Positions 1 through 7,124 of a stretch of 7,124 bases of DNA are shown one piece after another; the stretch's first letter is position 1, and every line of letters begins with the position of its first letter. The notes beneath the pieces were generated by a model. The model ran no database searches. It was given only the letters and a program-made list of their open reading frames with translations, and was not told the origin of the DNA. The DNA comes from Flectobacillus sp. (GTDB taxonomy: Bacteria > Bacteroidota > Bacteroidia > Cytophagales > Spirosomataceae), in contig JARXAV010000326.1 in NCBI GenBank assembly GCA_029865665.1, positions 1-7,124 of the forward strand, given 5' to 3'. The translations under genes were made by a program, and so were the position numbers.

Positions 1-44
1 CGCCATGCCTTCATGGTTTGGCTTGCAGCCACCACGAATGCTTA
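1..44 (-). repeat. Interspersed 3'-module repeat, copy 1 (cut by window edge)
   Basis: This is the gene-proximal end of the repeat seen complete at 327-460 and 4308-4451. It shares the 17-base string gccaccacgaatgctta (28-44) exactly with copy 3 (4435-4451). It also keeps the small hairpin TGGCT-tgc-AGCCA (19-31), whose stem is identical in all three copies while the loop varies. On the minus strand it follows the decayed TIR gene at 84-261 by about 40 bases. The rest of the copy lies outside the window. Confidence 0.8.
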
Positions 45-83
45 GTAACAACTGGAAGTTAATTTATGACTCATTTGGAGCAA

Positions 84-261
84 CTATTGTTTTTTCATAC
101 TTTCTCTAGTTGTTTTCAAAATACTTATAATCCTCTCTGCGTTTTCCCAGGCACGTAACCAATTTTGCTCTCCTCCCGTATACAGTCAATCGTCGGGCAA
201 CACTACGGGCTACGATTTTATCAGCGTGAGAATAGCTTACAAATACTTTTAACGAATCCAT
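84..261 (-). pseudogene. Truncated, frameshifted TIR-domain gene remnant
   Basis: A minus-strand ATG at 261 opens a reading frame beginning MDSLKVFVSYSHADKIVARS and continuing to about residue 29 (VARRLTVYG). This is a clear TIR-domain start: beta-strand A (KVFVSYSHAD) followed by helix A. After about position 178 this frame gives an unconvincing tail (stop at 106-108). The next minus frame, from about 179, reads a more protein-like segment containing EQNWLRAWENAERIISILK and ends with a stop at 84-86. The gene therefore seems to have lost most of its TIR domain, including the expected catalytic glutamate region, by deletion and frameshift. The source of the C-terminal piece is not recognised. 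The remnant lies just upstream, in the minus sense, of repeat copy 1, as the two intact genes lie before theirs. Alternatively it is a real 51-residue peptide, which I think unlikely. Confidence 0.6.
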
Positions 262-326
262 TAATCTCTTAAGTTTAGTTTATTGGAAATTTTGAAACTA
301 AAAACTATTATCGGAATGTATGCGAA

Positions 327-460
327 TGAAAAAGCAGACAAAAGCTGCTTTTTCAAATATCTCCCAGTCGAACGACACCCCATAAAAGAAAACACTTGTG
401 CCAACCACCCAAAATTAGGTTCAAGACAATCTTCATCGCATGGCTTGTAGCCACCACGAA
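327..460 (-). repeat. Interspersed 3'-module repeat, copy 2
   Basis: This direct repeat matches copy 3 (4308-4451) along its length, with blocks in the same order: an A-flanked hairpin, then caaatatct, agtcgaa/gac, cataaaagaaa, a ccaac block, aaaa-ttgag/ggttcaa, the hairpin TGGCT-tgt-AGCCA (441-453), and gtagccaccacgaa. It carries no conserved reading frame: one minus frame is open through copy 2, but the equivalent frame in copy 3 meets a stop. Before the IS630 insertion, this copy lay about 35 bases after the stop codon of the TIR/beta-propeller gene on the minus strand. It may act as a 3' untranslated or terminator element, or as a recombination or cassette boundary. Confidence 0.8.
329..353 (-). 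terminator. Hairpin with flanking A/T tracts in repeat copy 2
   Basis: AAAAAGCAG (329-337) and CTGCTTTTT (345-353) form a 9-bp stem around a 7-base loop. Because the stem ends are A and T tracts it could terminate transcription in either direction. In the minus sense it lies at the far end of the repeat that followed the TIR/beta-propeller gene before the IS insertion. The equivalent hairpin in copy 3 has the same place but partly different stem sequence (AGCAGG/CCTGCT), which suggests that structure is retained. Confidence 0.55.
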
Positions 461-495
461 GGACATAAATCATTATACCTTTTTCAGCTATCATA

Positions 496-514
496 CACAA
501 GTAAGTAATCTGTC
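496..514 (+). repeat. Left terminal inverted repeat of the IS630 element
   Basis: CACAAGTAAGTAATCTGTC pairs with the reverse complement of the right end, CTAACATAAGTAATTAGAC, at 13 of 19 positions. The block TAAGTAAT is perfectly in register when both ends are aligned from the flanking TA. Confidence 0.65.
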
Positions 515-545
515 ATAATAAAAGTATATTTTTATATCTTCGTCT

Positions 546-1561
546 ATGCGTTACATCAAGCTCAATAAAGAAGAAATACAGCAACTCGTATCCATGGAGT
601 TAGCCACGATTAGTCAACCTTTGCGAAATAGGATAAAATGTCTTTTAATGTCGCACAAAGGAGCTAAGGTAAAAGAATTATATCTCTATTTTGACGTTGT
701 TCCCAAAACCATTTACGAATGGTTTGATTTATGGGACAAAGGTGGTTGTATTGGTATTTTACACAAACCTGGCACTGGTCGTAAAGCAAAGCTAAAAGAT
801 ATTCCATTAGAAGTGATTGAAGCAATTAGTCAAAAAATATCCTCGGAACTTGAATGGAGTAATCGCAGAACTCATTGAGAATTATTCTTTAACCATATCC
901 ATTAGAACTTTACATCGGTATATAAAAAAAGTTGAACTTCACATGGCGTAGGGTTCGCAAATCGCTTAAAGCCAAACGAAATCCAGTTGAGTTTGCTTGT
1001 AAAAAGGCTGAGGCGGTACGCCGCTCGATAGAACAATTAGAATCCCTTGCAAACCAAGATTATCTTGATGTATTCTATTACGATGAGAGTCATTTTTGCT
1101 TAACTCCTTGTGTTCCTTACGCTTGGCAAATTAAGGGTAAAACGATTGAAATACCCACTGCAAGAAGTAAAAATATTAATGTAGCAGGCTTTTTCTCCAA
1201 AAAGAATCAGCTCATCCATTACTATTCAGAAGCAAGTATTAATAGCGAAAAACTAACAGAAATATTCAATGATTTTGCCCTTAAAACCACCCAAAAGACA
1301 GTCGTCATAATGGATAATGCACCGATTCATAAAAGTAAAATGTTTATCTCAAATATAGAAAAATGGCGTGTAGAGAATGATTTATTTCTGCTCTTCTTGC
1401 CAACCTATTCCCCCGAACTTAATCTTATTGAGATTCTGTGGAGAAAGATTAAATACGAGTGGCTAGAATTTAACGCTTATTTGTCATTCGATAGACTCAA
1501 AAGAAATCTAAAAACAATACTTGATAACGTAGGCAATAAATTTAACATTCAATTTGTCTAA
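546..1561 (+). pseudogene. IS630-family DDE transposase, broken by two frameshifts
   Basis: Three frames together give one IS630 transposase of about 338 residues. The first (546 to about 837) holds the N-terminal helix-turn-helix, including KVKELYLYFDVVPKTIYEWF and a GKxGxGRK-like linker (KPGTGRK). The second (about 832-930) reads KYPRNLNGVIAELIEN and then TLHRYIKK, typical of the second HTH. The third (about 929-1561) carries the DDE catalytic domain: YYDESHF, VVIMDNAPIHK and SPELNLIEILWRKIK, giving D51, D128 and E167 counted from the TTG at 932. The first frame alone stops at 878. Both breaks fall at A runs (832-837 and 924-930). Deleting one A from each run restores continuous homology (SQKYPRNLNG and YIKKLNFTWRR). 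All catalytic residues survive. This is either recent decay or homopolymer sequencing error. Programmed frameshifting is unlikely because two shifts would be needed. Confidence 0.85.
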
Positions 1562-1574
1562 TTACTTATGTTAG
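1556..1574 (+). repeat. Right terminal inverted repeat of the IS630 element
   Basis: GTCTAATTACTTATGTTAG is the partner of 496-514. It overlaps the last codons and stop of the transposase frame (1559-1561) and is followed by TA at 1575-1576. The neighbouring minus-strand gene has its stop codon at 1577-1579. Confidence 0.65.
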
Positions 1575-1576
1575 TA

Positions 1577-3631
1577 TTATAAGGAAGATTTAATTATATA
1601 TTTTGGTGTTATATATGTATTTAAGCCGTCCAAAAAATACGTTTTGGTTGTTTGGTCATAACTTATGGTATTTATAAGATCTCTTAAAGTAGAATTATCT
1701 TTTATATCTAAATTCCAGAATTTTATATTTTCATGAAAACCAACTGTCAATGCTTTTTTGTTATCATTAGAAATAAATACCTGTACAATTGGTTTCGTAT
1801 GTCCCTTTAATATATGTTTAATATTTCCTCTATCCCAAATAATGGCTAATTTGTCTTCGCTACCAGTCATTACCAATATATTGTCATTTGAAAAAGTGCT
1901 GCTTAGAATATTAGAACTGTGTCCTCCAATTAATGAATATTGAGGAAATAAGTGCCTAGTGTCAGCAACTATGGGGTTTGTACTGTTAAATTGAGAAATG
2001 ATAAACCGATTGTCATTCCTCGAAAGTGAAAGGTGTTCAACCCCTCTGTTTGTAAGTGTGCGAGGCCCTGTGATACTTTCCAAATTAATAATTTCGGGTT
2101 TCTTTGGATTGTGTTTAAAGGAAATAATGAACTCACCTTTCTTAGAAGAAATATATAGGCATCCTTCACCAAATCTGTTGAGGTTTATGTTATCAGATAC
2201 CACCACTTCATAAATATTATCCTGTGAGTCGTCAGAAAAATATATTTTTCCTGTTATATAATTTTGCAATTTAAGAGTATTAGCACTCCAAATTACAATT
2301 GTTGTATCATCTGGACAAAACAATACTTGTAGATGTGAGACAGGAATCGAACTTTTAATTTCCTTTTCTTTTACAAGCTTAGAACCGGTAATAGTATAAA
2401 TTATAATTCTGTTATTTAAAAATGTAGCCAGCTTTTTTCCATTATTAGAAATTTGTAACAATTCCTCTGAAGTATCTGTGATGAGATTATTTAAGATTGT
2501 CGTTTTTCCTGTAATTAAATTTATAGTTTTAAATGGAACAATAGAATCTTTGCTATTAACAATAATCAAATCGTTGCCGCTGCTTATTTTCCAATCACAC
2601 ATTTGTGGGTTGAACCCGTGTTCGATAGTATATGTTCTATGATTTTTTCTTATGTCCCAATCATAAATACTTACAGTTCCATGATAATCTATTACAGCAA
2701 TATTTTTCCCGTTAGGATAAAGTTTAGCTAATGAGCCTGCTACGCTTTTATAAAAAGGAGCAAAAATATAGGCTTTAAATAGAACTAAATATCCTTCTAC
2801 TGTTGGGTAAACAGATAGTGCCTGTTTCGCTAAATCAAATCCTTTGGTGGGATCGTTATTCAAAAGGCTGGAAGCTGAACTTACTATAGAATTTGCTTTT
2901 GCAATCTTATCAGAAAGAAACCTCAATGAATCGGCAATCTCCTTTTGGGATTTTGCTTGGTCTCTTACGCTCATCGCTTCAGACATTTGTTTTTGGGCGA
3001 TATTCTTTTGTCTTATTGCAGTATCTCTTTTTTGCTCTGCAACACTTCTTTCCTTAAGTGCAGTGTCAGCATCATTTCTTGCATTTATTGTATAAAATGT
3101 TGCTAAAGCTGTAATAGTAAGAATCCCCAAAATGACAGACAATGATATATTTCTAAGTCGCCTACTTCTCTTAGTAAACTGTAATGAATTTGCGATTCTG
3201 TCAAGCACATCCTGTTCTGGAGTACCTTTATCTAAGTTTTGCAACGAATCATCTATTAGTGCAAGACCCCAAATTTTTTCCTGCCATATTGCACTCACAT
3301 TGATAGCACCATTAATGGTAATCGGAATAAGAGGCTTATTTTTGTTGTTTTTCAAAAATAGTTCTATTTCTTGGTCGATTGCTTCAGAACTTTGAGCACA
3401 AATGCTGCCGATTAGTACAAACGATGTGGAGTTTTTAACGGCATCTATTATATTTGATGGTAGCTCTTTACCTGGTGTGATGCTTGAGAGTTGATCAATA
3501 TAACAGTCGAGGTCTTTTTTCATGAAATACTGAGCAATAGCATAAGCATAGTCAAGACTATCCTTTCGGGAATAGGAAATGAATATATCATATCCAAAAA
3601 TGCTTTTTTTGATGCTGTTTAACAAAGACAT
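1577..3631 (-). CDS. TIR domain - membrane helix - coiled coil - WD40-like beta-propeller protein
   Basis: This is an intact 684-residue protein. Residues 14-110 form a TIR domain: YDIFISYSRKD (beta A), YIDQLSSITPGKEL with D46 and PG (BB-loop region), FVLIGSICAQSSEAIDQEIELF with E88 in the place of the catalytic glutamate, and KPLIPI (beta E). The tryptophan often found near this glutamate is absent. Residues about 161-182 form a single hydrophobic membrane helix after a basic KRSRRLR stretch, which suggests a cytoplasmic TIR side. Residues about 184-250 are Ala/Gln/Lys/Glu-rich heptads predicted to be a coiled coil. From about 290 to the end the protein is beta-rich, with two recognisable WD40 blades (GHSSN..WD at 570-600, GHTKP..WN at 610-640) and more divergent ones before them. 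No NACHT or other NTPase lies between sensor and effector, unlike many STAND proteins. Bacterial TIR domains often hydrolyse NAD or make signalling nucleotides in anti-phage defence. The propeller would sense and the coiled coil oligomerise, which is inference. The ATG at 3631 begins just before the TIR domain. Confidence 0.85.
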   Translation of the reverse strand: MSLLNSIKKSIFGYDIFISYSRKDSLDYAYAIAQYFMKKDLDCYIDQLSSITPGKELPSNIIDAVKNSTSFVLIGSICAQSSEAIDQEIELFLKNNKNKPLIPITINGAINVSAIWQEKIWGLALIDDSLQNLDKGTPEQDVLDRIANSLQFTKRSRRLRNISLSVILGILTITALATFYTINARNDADTALKERSVAEQKRDTAIRQKNIAQKQMSEAMSVRDQAKSQKEIADSLRFLSDKIAKANSIVSSASSLLNNDPTKGFDLAKQALSVYPTVEGYLVLFKAYIFAPFYKSVAGSLAKLYPNGKNIAVIDYHGTVSIYDWDIRKNHRTYTIEHGFNPQMCDWKISSGNDLIIVNSKDSIVPFKTINLITGKTTILNNLITDTSEELLQISNNGKKLATFLNNRIIIYTITGSKLVKEKEIKSSIPVSHLQVLFCPDDTTIVIWSANTLKLQNYITGKIYFSDDSQDNIYEVVVSDNINLNRFGEGCLYISSKKGEFIISFKHNPKKPEIINLESITGPRTLTNRGVEHLSLSRNDNRFIISQFNSTNPIVADTRHLFPQYSLIGGHSSNILSSTFSNDNILVMTGSEDKLAIIWDRGNIKHILKGHTKPIVQVFISNDNKKALTVGFHENIKFWNLDIKDNSTLRDLINTISYDQTTKTYFLDGLNTYITPKYIIKSSL

Positions 3632-3666
3632 AGTGTTATCATCTAATTTGGTTTATCGTTTTTTTG

Positions 3667-3702
3667 CAAAATTGGCTTTAGTTGTGCTGCGATATTCAAC
3701 AA
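3667..3702 (-). promoter_or_regulatory. Candidate Bacteroidota-type promoter for the TIR/beta-propeller gene
   Basis: On the minus strand CAATTTTG (3667-3674) matches seven of eight positions of the TAnnTTTG -7 consensus. A TTG at 3697-3699 (another at 3700-3702) lies about 22 bases further upstream, as expected for the -33 element. Transcription would start roughly 25-30 bases before the ATG at 3631. In such AT-rich sequence a chance match is possible. Confidence 0.35.
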
Positions 3703-3725
3703 TATTTCAAATATTAACCTCCTAT

Positions 3726-3740
3726 AGTACTTTTTCGTAC
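3726..3740. promoter_or_regulatory. Possible operator: AGTACTTTTTCGTAC inverted repeat
   Basis: GTAC (3727-3730) and GTAC (3737-3740) flank TTTTTC, about 95 bases upstream of the TIR/beta-propeller start. Pieces of the same word lie upstream of the deoxyribosyltransferase-like gene: AGTACTTTTT (5279-5288) and CTTTTCGTAC (5328-5337). A shared regulator is possible; a compositional coincidence cannot be excluded. Confidence 0.3.
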
Positions 3741-4300
3741 GATACAATTGTTATAAGTTTTTCATGTTTAAGACATTGTTGTTCAAAATGATACAGTTAA
3801 TTATAATAGTATATTTCTAAGGGGTTTATTTTCTTACTTAGAATCATTTTCGTGAATAGGATCAGGATATTTGCGAAGATTAGGAACTCGTACTCCTCCA
3901 AGCCTAGGCTAACTGCTGATGAATGTAGAAATAAAAGTTGATGACTTATTTACCACTGAACAGTATTGAGTCCAGCCCAAACTGAAGCACAACATTACTC
4001 TAACTGCTGAAACACTGCCCAGCTTTTGCCAATAGCATTGTTGAACTAAACCTGTGGTAGCTTTATTTAGCCCTACGTTTTATCTGTATATAAATTACGA
4101 ACTTTTTTCGATGATGACAAAAAAGAATTTCGATGAATTGAGAGTGAATAAGATTATTCACCGAGTACCGGTAAAAGACACTGACTTTAAATCACATCTT
4201 TATCTTTTCGAACATAACATTTGTATTTTAGGTAAAAATAAAAGCACTTTTCAGAACAACGCTTGCCGTGTTACCTCCATTGCCATTCCTCTGAAGCCCT

Positions 4301-4330
4301 AAAAAACAAAAAAGCAGGCGAAAACCTGCT
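4301..4330 (-). terminator. Rho-independent terminator in repeat copy 3
   Basis: Read on the minus strand, AGCAGG-ttttcg-CCTGCT (4313-4330) forms a 6-bp GC-containing stem followed directly by TTTTTTGTTTTTT. This is a textbook intrinsic terminator shape. It lies about 140 bases after the stop of the minus-strand gene at 4468-5211, at the far end of the repeat, so that gene's transcript would carry the whole repeat as its 3' end. Confidence 0.65.
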
Positions 4331-4451
4331 CTTCCAAATATCTTCAAGTCGAATGACAACTCCATAAAAGAAATCACTGAGCCCAACCGCTACCAAAAGT
4401 TGAGTTCAACATCGCCTTTATGGTTTGGCTGGTAGCCACCACGAATGCTTA
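4308..4451 (-). repeat. Interspersed 3'-module repeat, copy 3
   Basis: This complete copy runs, in the minus sense, from 16 bases after the stop codon of the deoxyribosyltransferase-like gene to the terminator hairpin. It contains the conserved small hairpin TGGCT-ggt-AGCCA (4426-4438), the gccaccacgaatgctta end (4435-4451), a local palindrome-like gttgagttcaac (4399-4410), and the cataaaagaaa block. No reading frame is shared with copy 2: the minus frame that is open there meets a stop here. The repeat therefore behaves as RNA or DNA structure rather than as a gene. It is too distant and too complete to be a chance match with copy 2. Confidence 0.8.
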
Positions 4452-4467
4452 ATTATTAGCAGCTGCT

Positions 4468-5211
4468 TTATCGGATTTGTTGAAGCAAGAATGTTGCCTT
4501 TCTATTACCAGCGTTAAGTAATCTTACTTGCCACGGTATATTAGCAATTTTTTCAGGCGGGGAGTCTAAATCTATATACAAATATTGAGTTTCTAATTCC
4601 TCTTTATCACCCCAAGCAGAATATCTTAAGAAATGAATTTGAAGTTTGGAGGCATTATTCCCGATAGCTGGTGAGTTAAATGATAACTCATATAAGAACC
4701 GTTCATCGCCTGAAAATCTCTCAGGAAAAAAATGCTTCTCATCTTCACTCAAGGCAATAGTGTATTGCTGTCCAATATTGCCTTGCAAGCTACCAATTAA
4801 ATCTACTCTCAGTTTTCTAGCTCCTGCTATAGATTGCTCATACAAAATGCATCGATACTGTCTTAAATCAAAAGGAACAGAATCCATACTCTGCGTTAGT
4901 AGTACCAGCTTATTCATATCTTTAATGCAATGTGCCAAGCCAAGTTCATAAAAAACGTTGGGATTTTGGCCAGTTAAGTCTGCAATAATGTATTCAGCAC
5001 TTGCGATATTCTCAAGTATCGTTTCCAGTATATGAGGCCTTAAAATGTCGTCACCCCTACGACAAGTCAATCTAAGTTCTGAATTTTCTAAAGTTTCTTT
5101 AATTACTGTGTAAATCTCATTATATGCTGCAGCGAATGGCATTATAACAAAACATGTTCCCGAAATTACATTAGGGCAATTTTTAAAATAGTGTTTAGGA
5201 TAAATGTTCAT
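4468..5211 (-). CDS. Nucleoside 2-deoxyribosyltransferase-like / TIR-like domain protein with C-terminal beta-rich domain
   Basis: This is an intact 247-residue protein. Residues about 19-125 show the signature of the nucleoside 2-deoxyribosyltransferase-like superfamily, which is structurally related to TIR: CFVIMPF (20-26, first beta-strand), RRGDDILRP (51-59), IIADLTGQNPNVFYELGLAH (75-94) with D78 and E89, the latter in the place of the catalytic glutamate, then KLVLLTQ and VPFDLRQYRCILY. In this fold the enzyme attacks N-glycosidic bonds of nucleosides or nucleotides. Residues about 150-247 are beta-rich, with several aromatic residues and no family I recognise; this part could bind a ligand or partner. 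There is no signal peptide or membrane segment, so it is probably cytoplasmic. The gene is followed by repeat copy 3. Next to TIR genes, a nucleotide-depleting or signalling role in immunity is plausible but unproven. The start at 5211 is the only ATG ahead of the domain. Confidence 0.75.
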   Translation of the reverse strand: MNIYPKHYFKNCPNVISGTCFVIMPFAAAYNEIYTVIKETLENSELRLTCRRGDDILRPHILETILENIASAEYIIADLTGQNPNVFYELGLAHCIKDMNKLVLLTQSMDSVPFDLRQYRCILYEQSIAGARKLRVDLIGSLQGNIGQQYTIALSEDEKHFFPERFSGDERFLYELSFNSPAIGNNASKLQIHFLRYSAWGDKEELETQYLYIDLDSPPEKIANIPWQVRLLNAGNRKATFLLQQIR

Positions 5212-5214
5212 TTT

Positions 5215-5450
5215 TTTAGATTAAAGATTACATTTCAATAAAAGTAGTTGCTAACTCCTAAATATACGAAAGTTTTGCAGTACTTTTTGTATTGTTTAGG
5301 ACTTTGCTTAGTTATCGTTGTGTTTTCCTTTTCGTACAATATAGATCTGTATATCACTCATGATTTATCAAAAATAAAAAACAAACCAACGTTAGCAAAT
5401 TTTATAACCACCTAAAAATCAAAAACTTATTAAACGGTTAAATCCCCTCA
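5215..5450. other. Intergenic boundary between the TIR-like modules and the conjugation genes
   Basis: No gene or repeat copy is found in this 236-base AT-rich gap. A weak minus-strand -7 candidate, TATATTTA (5259-5266), lies about 50 bases before the ATG at 5211. The words AGTACTTTTT (5279-5288) and CTTTTCGTAC (5328-5337) resemble the inverted repeat upstream of the TIR/beta-propeller gene. ATCTGTATAT (5345-5354) also occurs at 4082-4091. No clear terminator is visible after the M23 peptidase gene. Confidence 0.45.
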
Positions 5451-6014
5451 CTAAATCACCCACAAAGGATTCAAATAGCCCTTAAACCTTAGCACCGAAT
5501 AATGTAAATGTACTCCAGTCGAGTTTCCTGTACTGCCACAAAAACCTATCGTTTGTCCCTGATAGACGGTGGCATTGAGTTGGGTAGCAAAGCCGTTTAG
5601 GTGTCCGTAAACCGTTTCAAAACCTAGTAAGTGTTTTATTTTGATGAAGTTACCTAGCCCTGTTTGGTAGCCTAGTTCAATGACCTGTCCGTCTGCGGTG
5701 GTGTAAACAGCTTGGTTATAACGTGCTGCTATGTCGATGCCGTTATGAAACTTCACTTTTCCCTCAATCGGATGCACTCGATTGCCGTAGCTGGAAGTTA
5801 ATCGAAGCTTGGAAAGCGGATGATAAATCGGAATTTTAAACTCCAATTGCTGCCGAATACCTTGCATCGTGCTGTCAGGGCTATGTTGCCTGAATAAATC
5901 CACCAATTCATAGGTACTCATCGACTCCAATACCTGCCCTATATCTTTCCCATTTTGTGAATAAATCTTCGTGTTTATCAGCACTAAAAGCAGGATTATT
6001 TTTATGTTTTGCAT
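5451..6014 (-). CDS. Secreted M23-family (lysostaphin-type) metallopeptidase
   Basis: From the ATG at 6014 this is 187 residues; an in-frame GTG at 6023 would add three. I prefer the ATG because it directly precedes a signal peptide (MQNIKIILLLVLINTKIYSQ). Counted from the GTG, residues about 65-190 form a complete M23 core: SSYGNRVHPIEG, the zinc ligands H93 and D97 in FHNGIDIAA, YGHL with H141, and the HLHY motif with H172 and H174. This enzyme class cleaves peptide crosslinks in peptidoglycan; here it would act in the periplasm. It is transcribed divergently from a membrane protein and a VirB5-like gene. A conjugation-associated hydrolase that opens the wall for the transfer apparatus is therefore likely, though a general cell-wall role is possible. 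All zinc ligands are present, so it should be active. Confidence 0.85.
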   Translation of the reverse strand: MQNIKIILLLVLINTKIYSQNGKDIGQVLESMSTYELVDLFRQHSPDSTMQGIRQQLEFKIPIYHPLSKLRLTSSYGNRVHPIEGKVKFHNGIDIAARYNQAVYTTADGQVIELGYQTGLGNFIKIKHLLGFETVYGHLNGFATQLNATVYQGQTIGFCGSTGNSTGVHLHYSVLRFKGYLNPLWVI

Positions 6015-6054
6015 ATATTGCACGTTTTATATTATTTATATATACTTTTATATT

Positions 6055-6062
6055 TATATTTG
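6055..6062 (+). promoter_or_regulatory. Perfect -7 box TATATTTG ahead of the plus-strand conjugation genes
   Basis: TATATTTG matches the Bacteroidota TAnnTTTG -7 consensus at all fixed positions and lies 19 bases before the ATG at 6082. No good TTG -33 element is seen at the usual distance, so the promoter may be weak or activated. It lies in the 67-base divergent gap shared with the M23 gene. Confidence 0.5.
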
Positions 6063-6081
6063 TCACAAAAATACGAATTCT

Positions 6082-6588
6082 ATGCTTGTTCTCATCAGTG
6101 ATTTGCTTTCTGGTTTATTGATTCTCTTTATCACCGTACTACTTAATGGCGATATGGGAACAAAACAGTTTTTCCCTTTGCCATTAGTCGGATTACTCTA
6201 TCATAGGCAGTTTATCAAAAGCCCATATATGCTACTCTATTTCTACATAGTGCTTACGGTGAGCTTTAAGTTTCTAGTTGCCAATACGCTTACAGGATTA
6301 ATGCTTTACCTAGTATTACTGGGTTTACAAGTCTTTGTGTTGGTCTTCATTTTCTACACAAAGTATCAGAAGAAGAGCGATTCGTGGCTTTTGTACATCG
6401 AGCGAATTACGGATATTTTGAGCCGTTTAAAAACAACCTTTCGCAAACCTGAGTCTAAAACGCCTAGTGAAAATCTCAGCTTATCCGATATTCAGTACCT
6501 ATTACAGCAACTAATTTTCCCTAGTGTTTTCCTCACAACGAACGCCTATTTAGTAACCAATCTTTTCATCTTTTTAAAAATCATCTAA
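6082..6588 (+). CDS. Small polytopic membrane protein, probable conjugation-module component
   Basis: This 168-residue protein has four likely membrane segments: residues about 2-21, 49-65, 70-92 and 144-168. A cytoplasmic-looking polar stretch lies between the third and fourth (about 94-140, containing KYQKKSDS and RKPESKTPSENLS). I do not recognise the family. The ATG at 6082 is chosen because it follows a good -7 box and leaves the divergent M23 start and promoter free; the open frame upstream to 5971 would overlap that gene. It ends 8 bases before the next gene, which encodes a VirB5/TrbJ-like protein, so the two probably form an operon. A role in the inner-membrane part of a type IV secretion system is inferred from this context only. 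Confidence 0.7.
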   Translation: MLVLISDLLSGLLILFITVLLNGDMGTKQFFPLPLVGLLYHRQFIKSPYMLLYFYIVLTVSFKFLVANTLTGLMLYLVLLGLQVFVLVFIFYTKYQKKSDSWLLYIERITDILSRLKTTFRKPESKTPSENLSLSDIQYLLQQLIFPSVFLTTNAYLVTNLFIFLKII

Positions 6589-6596
6589 TTCAAATC

Positions 6597-7124
6597 ATGA
6601 AAAAGACAATCTTCCTATCCTTTGCAAGCCTTGTGCTGTGCAATGGAATTCAAGCCCAAGCAGCAGTTATTGACCCAAGTAACCTTGCTCAAAACATTTT
6701 CCAAGTGATTCAGTCTAAAATTGAATCAAAACTTACGGGTGATGCAAAAGACATTGCCGATTCTCAATTAAAAACAGAAAGCCAAAGTACTGCGGACATT
6801 ATAGGCATGAACAGCACGGTGAAAACAGCTTTAAATTTAGAAATGGCTGAATTTAACTACGAGAATTCTCCCTCAGCCTTGTATAAAACCTATTACCAAA
6901 ACTTGGATGTTCGGGGTAAGAATTACAACATTCTCTCGCACTTGCAAGGGGTAAAAGCCTACTACCAGAGTAGCATTCTAGCCATTATCAGTCCTGTTCG
7001 GAATGATGCGTACATCAAACGGTTCAATGCTCTAGCCGAAGCAGTAAGCACTACCGATTTATTATATGCTCAGTTCACCAATACGGTTGATAATGGTAGT
7101 GGTTCAGCGACCAGTTTAGCTGCC
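6597..7124 (+). CDS. VirB5/TrbJ-like conjugal transfer protein, 3' end outside window
   Basis: An ATG at 6597 opens 176 codons that run without a stop to the window edge. Residues 1-21 are a signal peptide (MKKTIFLSFASLVLCNGIQA). The mature start, VIDPSNLAQNIFQVIQS, has the xxDPxNLAQN pattern typical of VirB5/TrbJ and of Bacteroidota TraI/DUF4141-type conjugation proteins, followed by a long helical, Gln/Lys/Ser-rich region. VirB5-type proteins are periplasmic or pilus-tip components of type IV secretion systems. The gene lies 8 bases after the membrane protein gene, and no Shine-Dalgarno sequence is visible, as is usual in this phylum. Family assignment rests on the N-terminal pattern and helical character, so the specific subfamily is uncertain. 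Confidence 0.65.
   Translation, partial: MKKTIFLSFASLVLCNGIQAQAAVIDPSNLAQNIFQVIQSKIESKLTGDAKDIADSQLKTESQSTADIIGMNSTVKTALNLEMAEFNYENSPSALYKTYYQNLDVRGKNYNILSHLQGVKAYYQSSILAIISPVRNDAYIKRFNALAEAVSTTDLLYAQFTNTVDNGSGSATSLAA

What the first reader, a model, noticed from the sequence alone, without database searches (positions are those of the whole stretch)
1..5211. Array of three TIR or TIR-like genes, each closed by the same non-coding repeat
Three consecutive minus-strand modules have the same plan: a promoterless-looking or leader region, one gene, then within 16-40 bases a conserved repeat of about 135-145 bp. The genes are different proteins of one functional theme: a decayed TIR gene, TIR-TM-coiled coil-propeller, and a deoxyribosyltransferase/TIR-like protein. 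This resembles a cassette array specialised in nucleotide-consuming effectors. The module layout is seen directly; cassette mobility and defence function are inferred.
Basis: partly seen in the sequence, partly recalled or inferred. Interest (0 to 1): 0.75.

Follow-up and report, generated by a model that had tools for sequence, protein, structure and literature searches.

The report
Integron-like gene cassettes with attC-targeting parasite
The repeat behind the genes looks like the shrunken remnant of a jumping element that homes in on the recombination sites of integron-like gene cassettes, and at least one gene beside it looks like such a cassette.

Summary
The copy at 4308-4451 is one end of a 415-bp, internally deleted relative of ISWz1, an IS91-family element with its own tyrosine recombinase; a 59-residue recombinase remnant survives. 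Full-length relatives sit just behind a same-sense gene stop in 28 of 33 cases (2.9 expected). Uninterrupted alleles of two cassettes show why: the element inserts into the R'' box of an integron-type attC site. The genes behave as cassettes: the box after the stop is complementary to the box before the start in 19 of 53 (permutation mean 2.3, 0/2000), window gene 4468-5211 included. That gene follows a conserved attI-like site seen at 25 places in 17 of 390 Cytophagales genomes; in 3 of 11 wide loci it lies just 3' of a 360-residue recombinase below the IntI cut-off and unmatched over part of that model. The TIR theme is local: none of 30 other proteins scanned had a TIR match. It works like an integron but is not filed as one. 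Recombination itself is inferred.

The parts
5255..5294 (-). attI-like site at the head of the cassette, ending ..GAG|TT; may double as a promoter (inferred)
   Evidence: 35-nt form matches 5260-5294 with 0 mismatches, 0 expected by shuffles (pattern made to fit this copy); 26-nt core at 25 places in 17 of 390 Cytophagales genomes, reversed pattern 1; 20 of 26 sites precede a sense ORF of at least 100 aa, 4.4 expected
5242..5254 (-). R' box, start of the cassette
   Evidence: complementary to R'' at 4456-4468 with 2 mismatches in 13
4468..5211 (-). cassette gene: TIR/deoxyribosyltransferase-like domain plus C-terminal beta-rich domain
4456..4468 (-). R'' box directly after the gene (overlaps the last base of the stop)
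   Evidence: uninterrupted relatives continue with C-spacer-L''
   Evidence: inverted ends 4039-4061/4389-4411 (I2); both ends as in full elements
4414..4448 (-). right-end hairpin of the element, 15 pairs with a 2-nt bulge
   Evidence: 96.9% of cells paired, 10 of 15 pairs with two-sided changes in 15 sequences; the window's own copy folds weakly, z -1.2
4307..4336 (-). terminator-like hairpin inside the element
4111..4302 (+). remnant of the element's tyrosine recombinase gene (N-terminus), then a stop
   Evidence: 42% identity over 59 residues to the pWB1 integrase, E=4e-13 in a two-sequence comparison; no Pfam match at cut-off
1577..3631 (-). TIR - WD40 propeller gene of the next module
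   Evidence: its R boxes could not be paired
546..1561 (+). IS630-family insertion (two ORF pieces) between the TIR-propeller gene and its repeat
328..460 (-). second, decayed copy of the element's right end with terminator-like hairpin
106..261 (-). TIR remnant, 51 codons
1..38 (-). third copy of the right-end hairpin, cut by the window edge

Best explanation
The window shows the head of an integron-like cassette array of a Bacteroidota bacterium, beside genes of a conjugative element, invaded by attC-targeting ISWz1-like elements. In gene sense the order is: attI-like site | R' - TIR-like gene - R'' | short ISWz1-like element | further, decayed cassette remains. Cassettes have complementary R' and R'' boxes at their two ends and a hairpin attC behind the gene (R''-spacer-L''...L'-spacer-G|TT): shown by comparison. 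They are exchanged at G|TT: shown by cassette borders. The enzyme is inferred; the best candidate is a tyrosine recombinase of about 360 residues which, where present, is encoded just upstream of the attI-like site in the same orientation. The ISWz1-like element (tyrosine recombinase plus IS91 transposase) inserts at the AA|C of an R'' box with its hairpin end next to the cassette gene: shown for two cassettes with empty alleles and in line with the other copies. Which of its two enzymes picks the site is not known; recognition of R-box or folded single-stranded DNA is inferred.
For: Same end next to integrase and IS91 transposase genes in Sphingobacterium pWB1 and in Myroides, Chryseobacterium and Arenibacter plasmids; integrase remnant in the window. 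Empty alleles: aadS uninterrupted in 3 records and interrupted in 2 (both flanks seen in p63039, the right flank only in pMA84474); BRCT uninterrupted in 1 and interrupted in 1. In a complete 9-Mb genome 10 of 10 copies compared begin at the AA of an R''-like box and 9 of 10 have a gene stop close by. Gene-stop link 44 of 55 vs 4.8 expected. R'/R'' complementarity 19 of 53 vs 2.33 by permutation, 0/2000. attI-like site. Recombinase 111-155 nt upstream of it in 3 of 11 wide loci; of 28 relatives with enough downstream DNA 14 have a G|TTR-type start within 300 nt, 1 on the reverse strand, 3.6 in shuffles. Right-end hairpin covaries.
Against: Only one of three repeat copies in the window sits behind an intact gene. 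The attC left of the short element could not be closed in the window, and the R boxes of the other two modules could not be paired. 34 of 53 units show no R' match at 2 mismatches (multi-gene or decayed cassettes, short loci, or the model failing); at 3 mismatches the excess is smaller (27 vs 15.1, none of 2000 as high); one of the 19 hits (L105) does not start with TT. In G010 there is no empty allele, so the AA could belong to the element. 8 of 11 wide attI-like loci have no related recombinase within about 10 kb upstream at E<=1e-3, and 14 of 28 recombinase loci lack the junction motif. The window's own hairpin folds weakly (z -1.2).
Confidence: 0.8

Rival explanations
1. The hairpin end is the cassette's own attC, and the recombinase/transposase unit is itself just another cassette, since its two ends also look like complementary R'/R'' boxes.
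For: The element's ends are inverted repeats that begin like an R' box; the right-end hairpin, with a constant 2-nt bulge, looks like an attC.
Against: The same cassettes (aadS, BRCT) carry a different, uninterrupted attC elsewhere, and that attC's remainder lies on the far side of the element.
Confidence: 0.08
2. Array specialised in TIR-type effectors in which the repeat is a fixed part of each module.
For: Three TIR or TIR-like genes in a row in this window.
Against: Diverse genes elsewhere, 0 of 30 TIR; cassettes exist without the repeat.
Confidence: 0.04
3. The repeat is a terminator or REP-like element that simply accumulates behind genes.
For: It holds a terminator-like hairpin and lies behind stops.
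Against: Same AA|C junction, R'/R'' complementarity across the gene, empty alleles, integrase remnant; no Rfam match at E<=1.
Confidence: 0.03
4. The element and cassette anatomy is right, but the cassettes are moved by classical IntI enzymes acting from elsewhere, not by the XerA-like recombinase.
For: One genome with repeat copies (G006) has an integron integrase above the cut-off, split by a frameshift. Reviews list Bacteroidota among phyla with integrons (passages of PMC8618304 and PMC9668308).
Against: No IntI above the cut-off in the other 5 genomes nor in 2 of 2, including the complete genome with at least 10 element copies; the XerA-like recombinase lies next to the attI-like site in 3 of 11 loci.
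Confidence: 0.15

Closest known systems
ISWz1 (IS91 family)
   Same: Integrase gene plus IS91 transposase gene on Myroides plasmids with the same ends; two papers name ISWz1 in such contexts, one reporting circular forms of 11.75 and 16.57 kb (passages of PMC11322121 and PMC9751785).
   Different: The passages seen do not describe insertion into attC sites, the hairpin end or short derivatives. The window copy has lost the transposase and most of the recombinase.
Integron cassettes and attC sites
   Same: R'' and R' boxes, G|TT border often preceded by C, spacer and L stem, gene in front of attC, exchange of whole cassettes.
   Different: The neighbouring recombinase scores below the integron-integrase cut-off and is unmatched over part of that model; it lies upstream of the attI-like site in the same direction; extra-helical bases are not clear at most sites.
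IS1111-attC group (ISKpn4, ISPst6)
   Different: Those encode a DEDD transposase guided by a seekRNA; here an IS91 transposase with a tyrosine recombinase.
Group IIC-attC introns
   Same: Mobile elements associated with integrons (PMC7923331, abstract start in a search listing only).
   Different: Introns, not DNA transposons.
Reverse integrons
   Same: Integrase and cassettes in one direction (recalled; listing only).
   Different: Those use IntI-type integrases (recalled).

Membership tests
IS91 family, ISWz1 branch | IS91 transposase with Y2_Tnp and zinc-binding domains | tested here: met
   For the full relative in pWB1: PF04986 E=1.7e-54, PF14319 E=2.4e-30, NF033538 412.9 bits, cut-off 125. 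The window copy itself has no transposase: it is a derivative.
IS91 family, ISWz1 branch | Conserved ends shared with full elements | tested here: met
   Inverted ends and right hairpin in the window copy
IS91 family, ISWz1 branch | Rolling-circle transposition | not testable with these tools
   Needs an assay
Integron gene cassette | R' at the start complementary to R'' after the gene, border at G|TT | tested here: met
   19 of 53 vs 2.33; 7 of 13 from attI-like sites vs 1.21; window gene included; 15 of the 19 junctions read G|TT
Integron gene cassette | Folded attC hairpin with unpaired central spacer | tested here: met
   12 uninterrupted sites from relatives fold with z -1.0 to -7.0 against single-base shuffles, several weak; not intact in the window
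Integron gene cassette | Extra-helical bases on the R''-L'' arm | tested here: inconclusive
   By eye one is visible in the OXA-347 attC; none clear in aadS or BRCT
Integron | Integrase with the IntI-specific domain | tested here: not met
   Candidate recombinases 159-177 bits, cut-off 265, matching the model in two stretches, the best covering positions 2-178 or less; their relatives and the element's recombinase leave positions about 180-237 unmatched
Integron | attI site next to the integrase gene | tested here: inconclusive
   attI-like site 111-155 nt 3' of a recombinase gene in 3 of 11 wide loci; same orientation, not divergent
Integron | Integrase-catalysed attI x attC recombination | not testable with these tools
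   Needs an assay

The most novel reading that the evidence does not exclude
Bacteroidota have their own widespread integron-class system, run by a XerA-like recombinase of about 360 residues with an N-terminal extension and no IntI-specific domain, with a combined attI/promoter site 3' of the recombinase gene and attC cassettes carrying accessory, defence and drug-resistance genes. It has been overlooked because detection rules ask for the IntI domain. It has its own parasite, an IS91/tyrosine-recombinase element whose end is an attC-like hairpin and which inserts into R'' boxes.
Probability: 0.6. Interest if true: 0.9.

Novelty: new variant of a known kind. Interest (0 to 1): 0.8.

Why it matters
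[quoted passage not shown] If a recombinase without that domain runs cassettes in this phylum, a cassette reservoir has gone uncounted: relatives of the recombinase occur in 117 of 395 Bacteroidia genomes sampled, although only some have an attI-like neighbourhood. It would explain how resistance genes such as aadS and OXA-347 are shuffled one by one between Bacteroides, Riemerella, Empedobacter, Sphingobacterium and Myroides plasmids, and how single accessory genes spread. It gives ISWz1 a defined target site. Whether cassette recombination needs the IntI domain becomes directly testable.

Tried and rejected
Known RNA family: no Rfam match at E<=1. Pattern scan of viral contigs: none. One of the 11 genome contigs stretches (L005, Sterolibacteriaceae) looks like a chance match and was dropped. 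My earlier reading that the hairpin is the cassette's own attC was dropped. A first R'/R'' test (16 of 41 vs 159 of 1626 swapped) used a wrong register for the window copy and was replaced. A single-sequence model of 4468-5211 failed (pLDDT 35); the alignment-based model worked. Walking whole arrays by script from 11 attI-like sites found a first cassette in 5 and a second candidate in one.

Rows dropped: two copies too near a locus edge (L117, first copy in L057); the window copy near 460 was not listed because its junction is too decayed to place; L022, L024 and L001 were counted and are misses. Misses among full elements: L116, L062 (gene stop beyond 100 nt), L053 (74-aa gene, below the 80-aa limit), L094, and the reversed catB in L060. 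The 'mini' class holds right ends without a fetched transposase; not all were shown to be deleted elements. In one search one attI-like site (L143) was too short, two recombinase loci (L168, L190). By eye three of the 14 junction hits look doubtful (L170, L176, L185). Most genes at G010 insertion sites were not scanned (one search failed). The precomputed domain PF22823 listed for most relatives of the recombinase did not appear in my own Pfam scan and was not placed.

Of eight papers I saw passages only (one search found none of its terms). Subscription papers and preprints were not searchable, so novelty in print is not established.
Full report
WHAT WAS CHECKED. No whole genome is held for the window; a protein search places gene 4468-5211 on two contigs, the longest 7124 bases. 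A DUF4141-like protein and an M23 peptidase lie on the right, which suggests a Bacteroidota conjugative element (recalled), and the reported modules on the left. The repeat is there in three minus-strand copies, the third cut by the edge. Only the copy at 4308-4451 directly follows an intact gene. The TIR-WD40 gene is split from its repeat by an IS630 insertion. The first TIR is a 51-codon remnant. Gene 4468-5211 is TIR/deoxyribosyltransferase-like.

WHERE ELSE THE REPEAT OCCURS. A scan of genome contigs gave 11 stretches, 10 of them in Cytophagales or other Bacteroidota records and one apparent chance hit. In six genomes 26 places matched at up to 3 mismatches, against 3 for the reversed pattern. 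In a first count 20 of 25 copies lay within about 60 nt of a same-sense ORF stop.

WHAT THE REPEAT IS. A weak plasmid hit led to Sphingobacterium pWB1, where the same end follows an integrase gene and an IS91 transposase gene. In G006 a relative of both lies beside a repeat copy. Myroides, Chryseobacterium and Arenibacter plasmids show the same unit. Two papers call such units ISWz1 (passages). In the window the same left end lies at 4041, followed by a 59-residue match to the integrase N-terminus (42%, E=4e-13 in a two-sequence comparison) and then directly by the right end. The window repeat is thus part of a non-autonomous, internally deleted element of 415 bp. The right-end hairpin covaries strongly across 15 sequences (96.9% of cells paired, 10 of 15 pairs with two-sided changes, slid controls 34-44%), with a constant 2-nt bulge. 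The window's own hairpin folds only weakly (z -1.2; three relatives -4.1 to -5.1), in keeping with decay.

WHY IT SITS BEHIND GENES. Comparing alleles explains this. The aadS cassette is uninterrupted in Bacteroides, Riemerella and Empedobacter plasmids and carries the element in two Myroides plasmids; in p63039 both flanks were compared, in pMA84474 the right flank only. The junction is AA|C of the box after the stop. The BRCT cassette is uninterrupted in Sphingobacterium pWB8 and interrupted at the same place in Myroides pMA84474. In a complete 9-Mb genome 10 of 10 copies compared begin at the AA of such a box and 9 of 10 have a gene stop close by; without an empty allele there, the AA could be the element's. 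Across 55 scored copies 44 have a same-sense ORF stop within -15 to 100 nt, against about 4.8 expected from random positions (28 of 33 full, 16 of 22 short). Transposase relatives at E<=1e-60 occur in 23 of 395 Bacteroidia genomes.

THE GENES ARE CASSETTES. The box after the stop (R'') is complementary to a box before the start (R') of the same unit in 19 of 53 at up to 2 mismatches in 13 (permutation mean 2.33, none of 2000 as high); at up to 1 mismatch 10 against 0.32, at up to 3 mismatches 27 against 15.1. Of those 19 junctions 15 read G|TT, 12 of them CG|TT; one (L105) does not start with TT. The other 34 show no match at that limit. For aadS the sequence left of the G|TT differs in all five records and is identical to its right; in the three records with an uninterrupted attC the far border is again G|TT. 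Twelve uninterrupted attC-like sites were folded (bottom strand, z -1.0 to -7.0 against single-base shuffles, some weak). Emticicia pEMTOL01 shows a row of such units, one with AbiLi/AbiLii-like genes. The attC rules used for comparison come from passages of PMC2727003.

AN attI-LIKE SITE. The sequence just before the window cassette is a conserved site ending ..GAG|TT (5255-5294). Its 26-nt core occurs at 25 places in 17 of 390 Cytophagales genomes, the reversed pattern at 1. Of 26 sites 20 have a sense ORF of at least 100 aa starting within -10 to 180 nt, against 4.4 expected; from 13 sites R'' is found for 7, window included, against 1.21 by permutation. One locus (L159) repeats the window's layout: attI-like site, cassette of 1250 bp, R'', element right end. 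The core holds a TATATTT stretch resembling the Bacteroidota -7 box (recalled), so it may double as a promoter; not tested.

A CANDIDATE INTEGRASE. In 3 of 11 wide loci a recombinase of 360-365 residues ends 111, 155 and 138 nt before the attI-like junction, same orientation; the other 8 have no relative at E<=1e-3 in the stretch fetched. The three score 159-177 bits against the integron-integrase model (cut-off 265), in two stretches, and have an N-terminal extension of about 80 residues with no Pfam match at its cut-off. Motifs known for the catalytic residues (recalled) are visible in the alignment. Relatives occur in 117 of 395 Bacteroidia genomes. Of 28 relatives with enough downstream DNA, 14 have a G|TTR-type start within 300 nt (reverse strand 1, shuffles 3.6); by eye three of the 14 look doubtful. 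L166 shows recombinase, junction, cassette and attC start in one locus. No IntI above the cut-off was found in 5 of 6 genomes or in 2 of 2; G006 has one, with a frameshift.

WHAT FOLLOWS. Shown: element identity, the insertion point for two cassettes, cassette borders, the attI-like site and its association with a recombinase in some loci. Inferred: that this recombinase moves the cassettes, that the element's recombinase or transposase recognises R'' or the hairpin, and that the window's other two modules are cassettes too. The system works like an integron but does not meet one defining feature tested (IntI-specific domain), so I do not file it as an integron. Reviews do list Bacteroidota among phyla with integrons (passages), and a survey found a complete one in Salinibacter (passage). 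The TIR theme looks local: 0 of 30 proteins scanned elsewhere had a TIR match, and 1 of 10 genes at attI-like sites had a PADLOC match at 1e-4.

Noticed in passing
window 5451-7124: M23 peptidase and a DUF4141-like protein beside the array: the cassettes may sit in a conjugative element.
   Followed up: no
window 546-1561: IS630-family insertion in two ORF pieces, inserted between the TIR-propeller gene and its repeat.
   Followed up: partly
window about 3712-3750, minus strand: A weak partial likeness to the attI-like site ahead of the TIR-propeller gene, seen by eye only.
   Followed up: no
L067 (Emticicia pEMTOL01) 1-8900: Row of cassette-like units with AbiLi/AbiLii-like genes near an annotated kwaB gene.
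   Followed up: partly
L057 about 1310-1400 and 2330-2410: Sequence downstream of two repeat copies resembles the end of a group II intron (recalled likeness, not tested).
   Followed up: no
L060 about 3890-3930: A gene-less unit of some 30 bp with its own complementary boxes between the catB attC and an element: possibly an ORF-less cassette (by eye).
   Followed up: no
L054 (G006:C58) 1388-2378: Classical integron integrase above the model cut-off but split by a frameshift, with a classical-looking attC behind the next gene (by eye).
   Followed up: partly
G010:C1 about 1.272-1.299 Mb (L089, L090): Three element copies, a second more distant IS91-type transposase and an extension-bearing recombinase within 27 kb of one complete genome.
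   Followed up: partly
window 4468-5211: The TIR-like protein has a C-terminal beta-rich domain (about residues 149-245) not named by any library used.
   Followed up: partly
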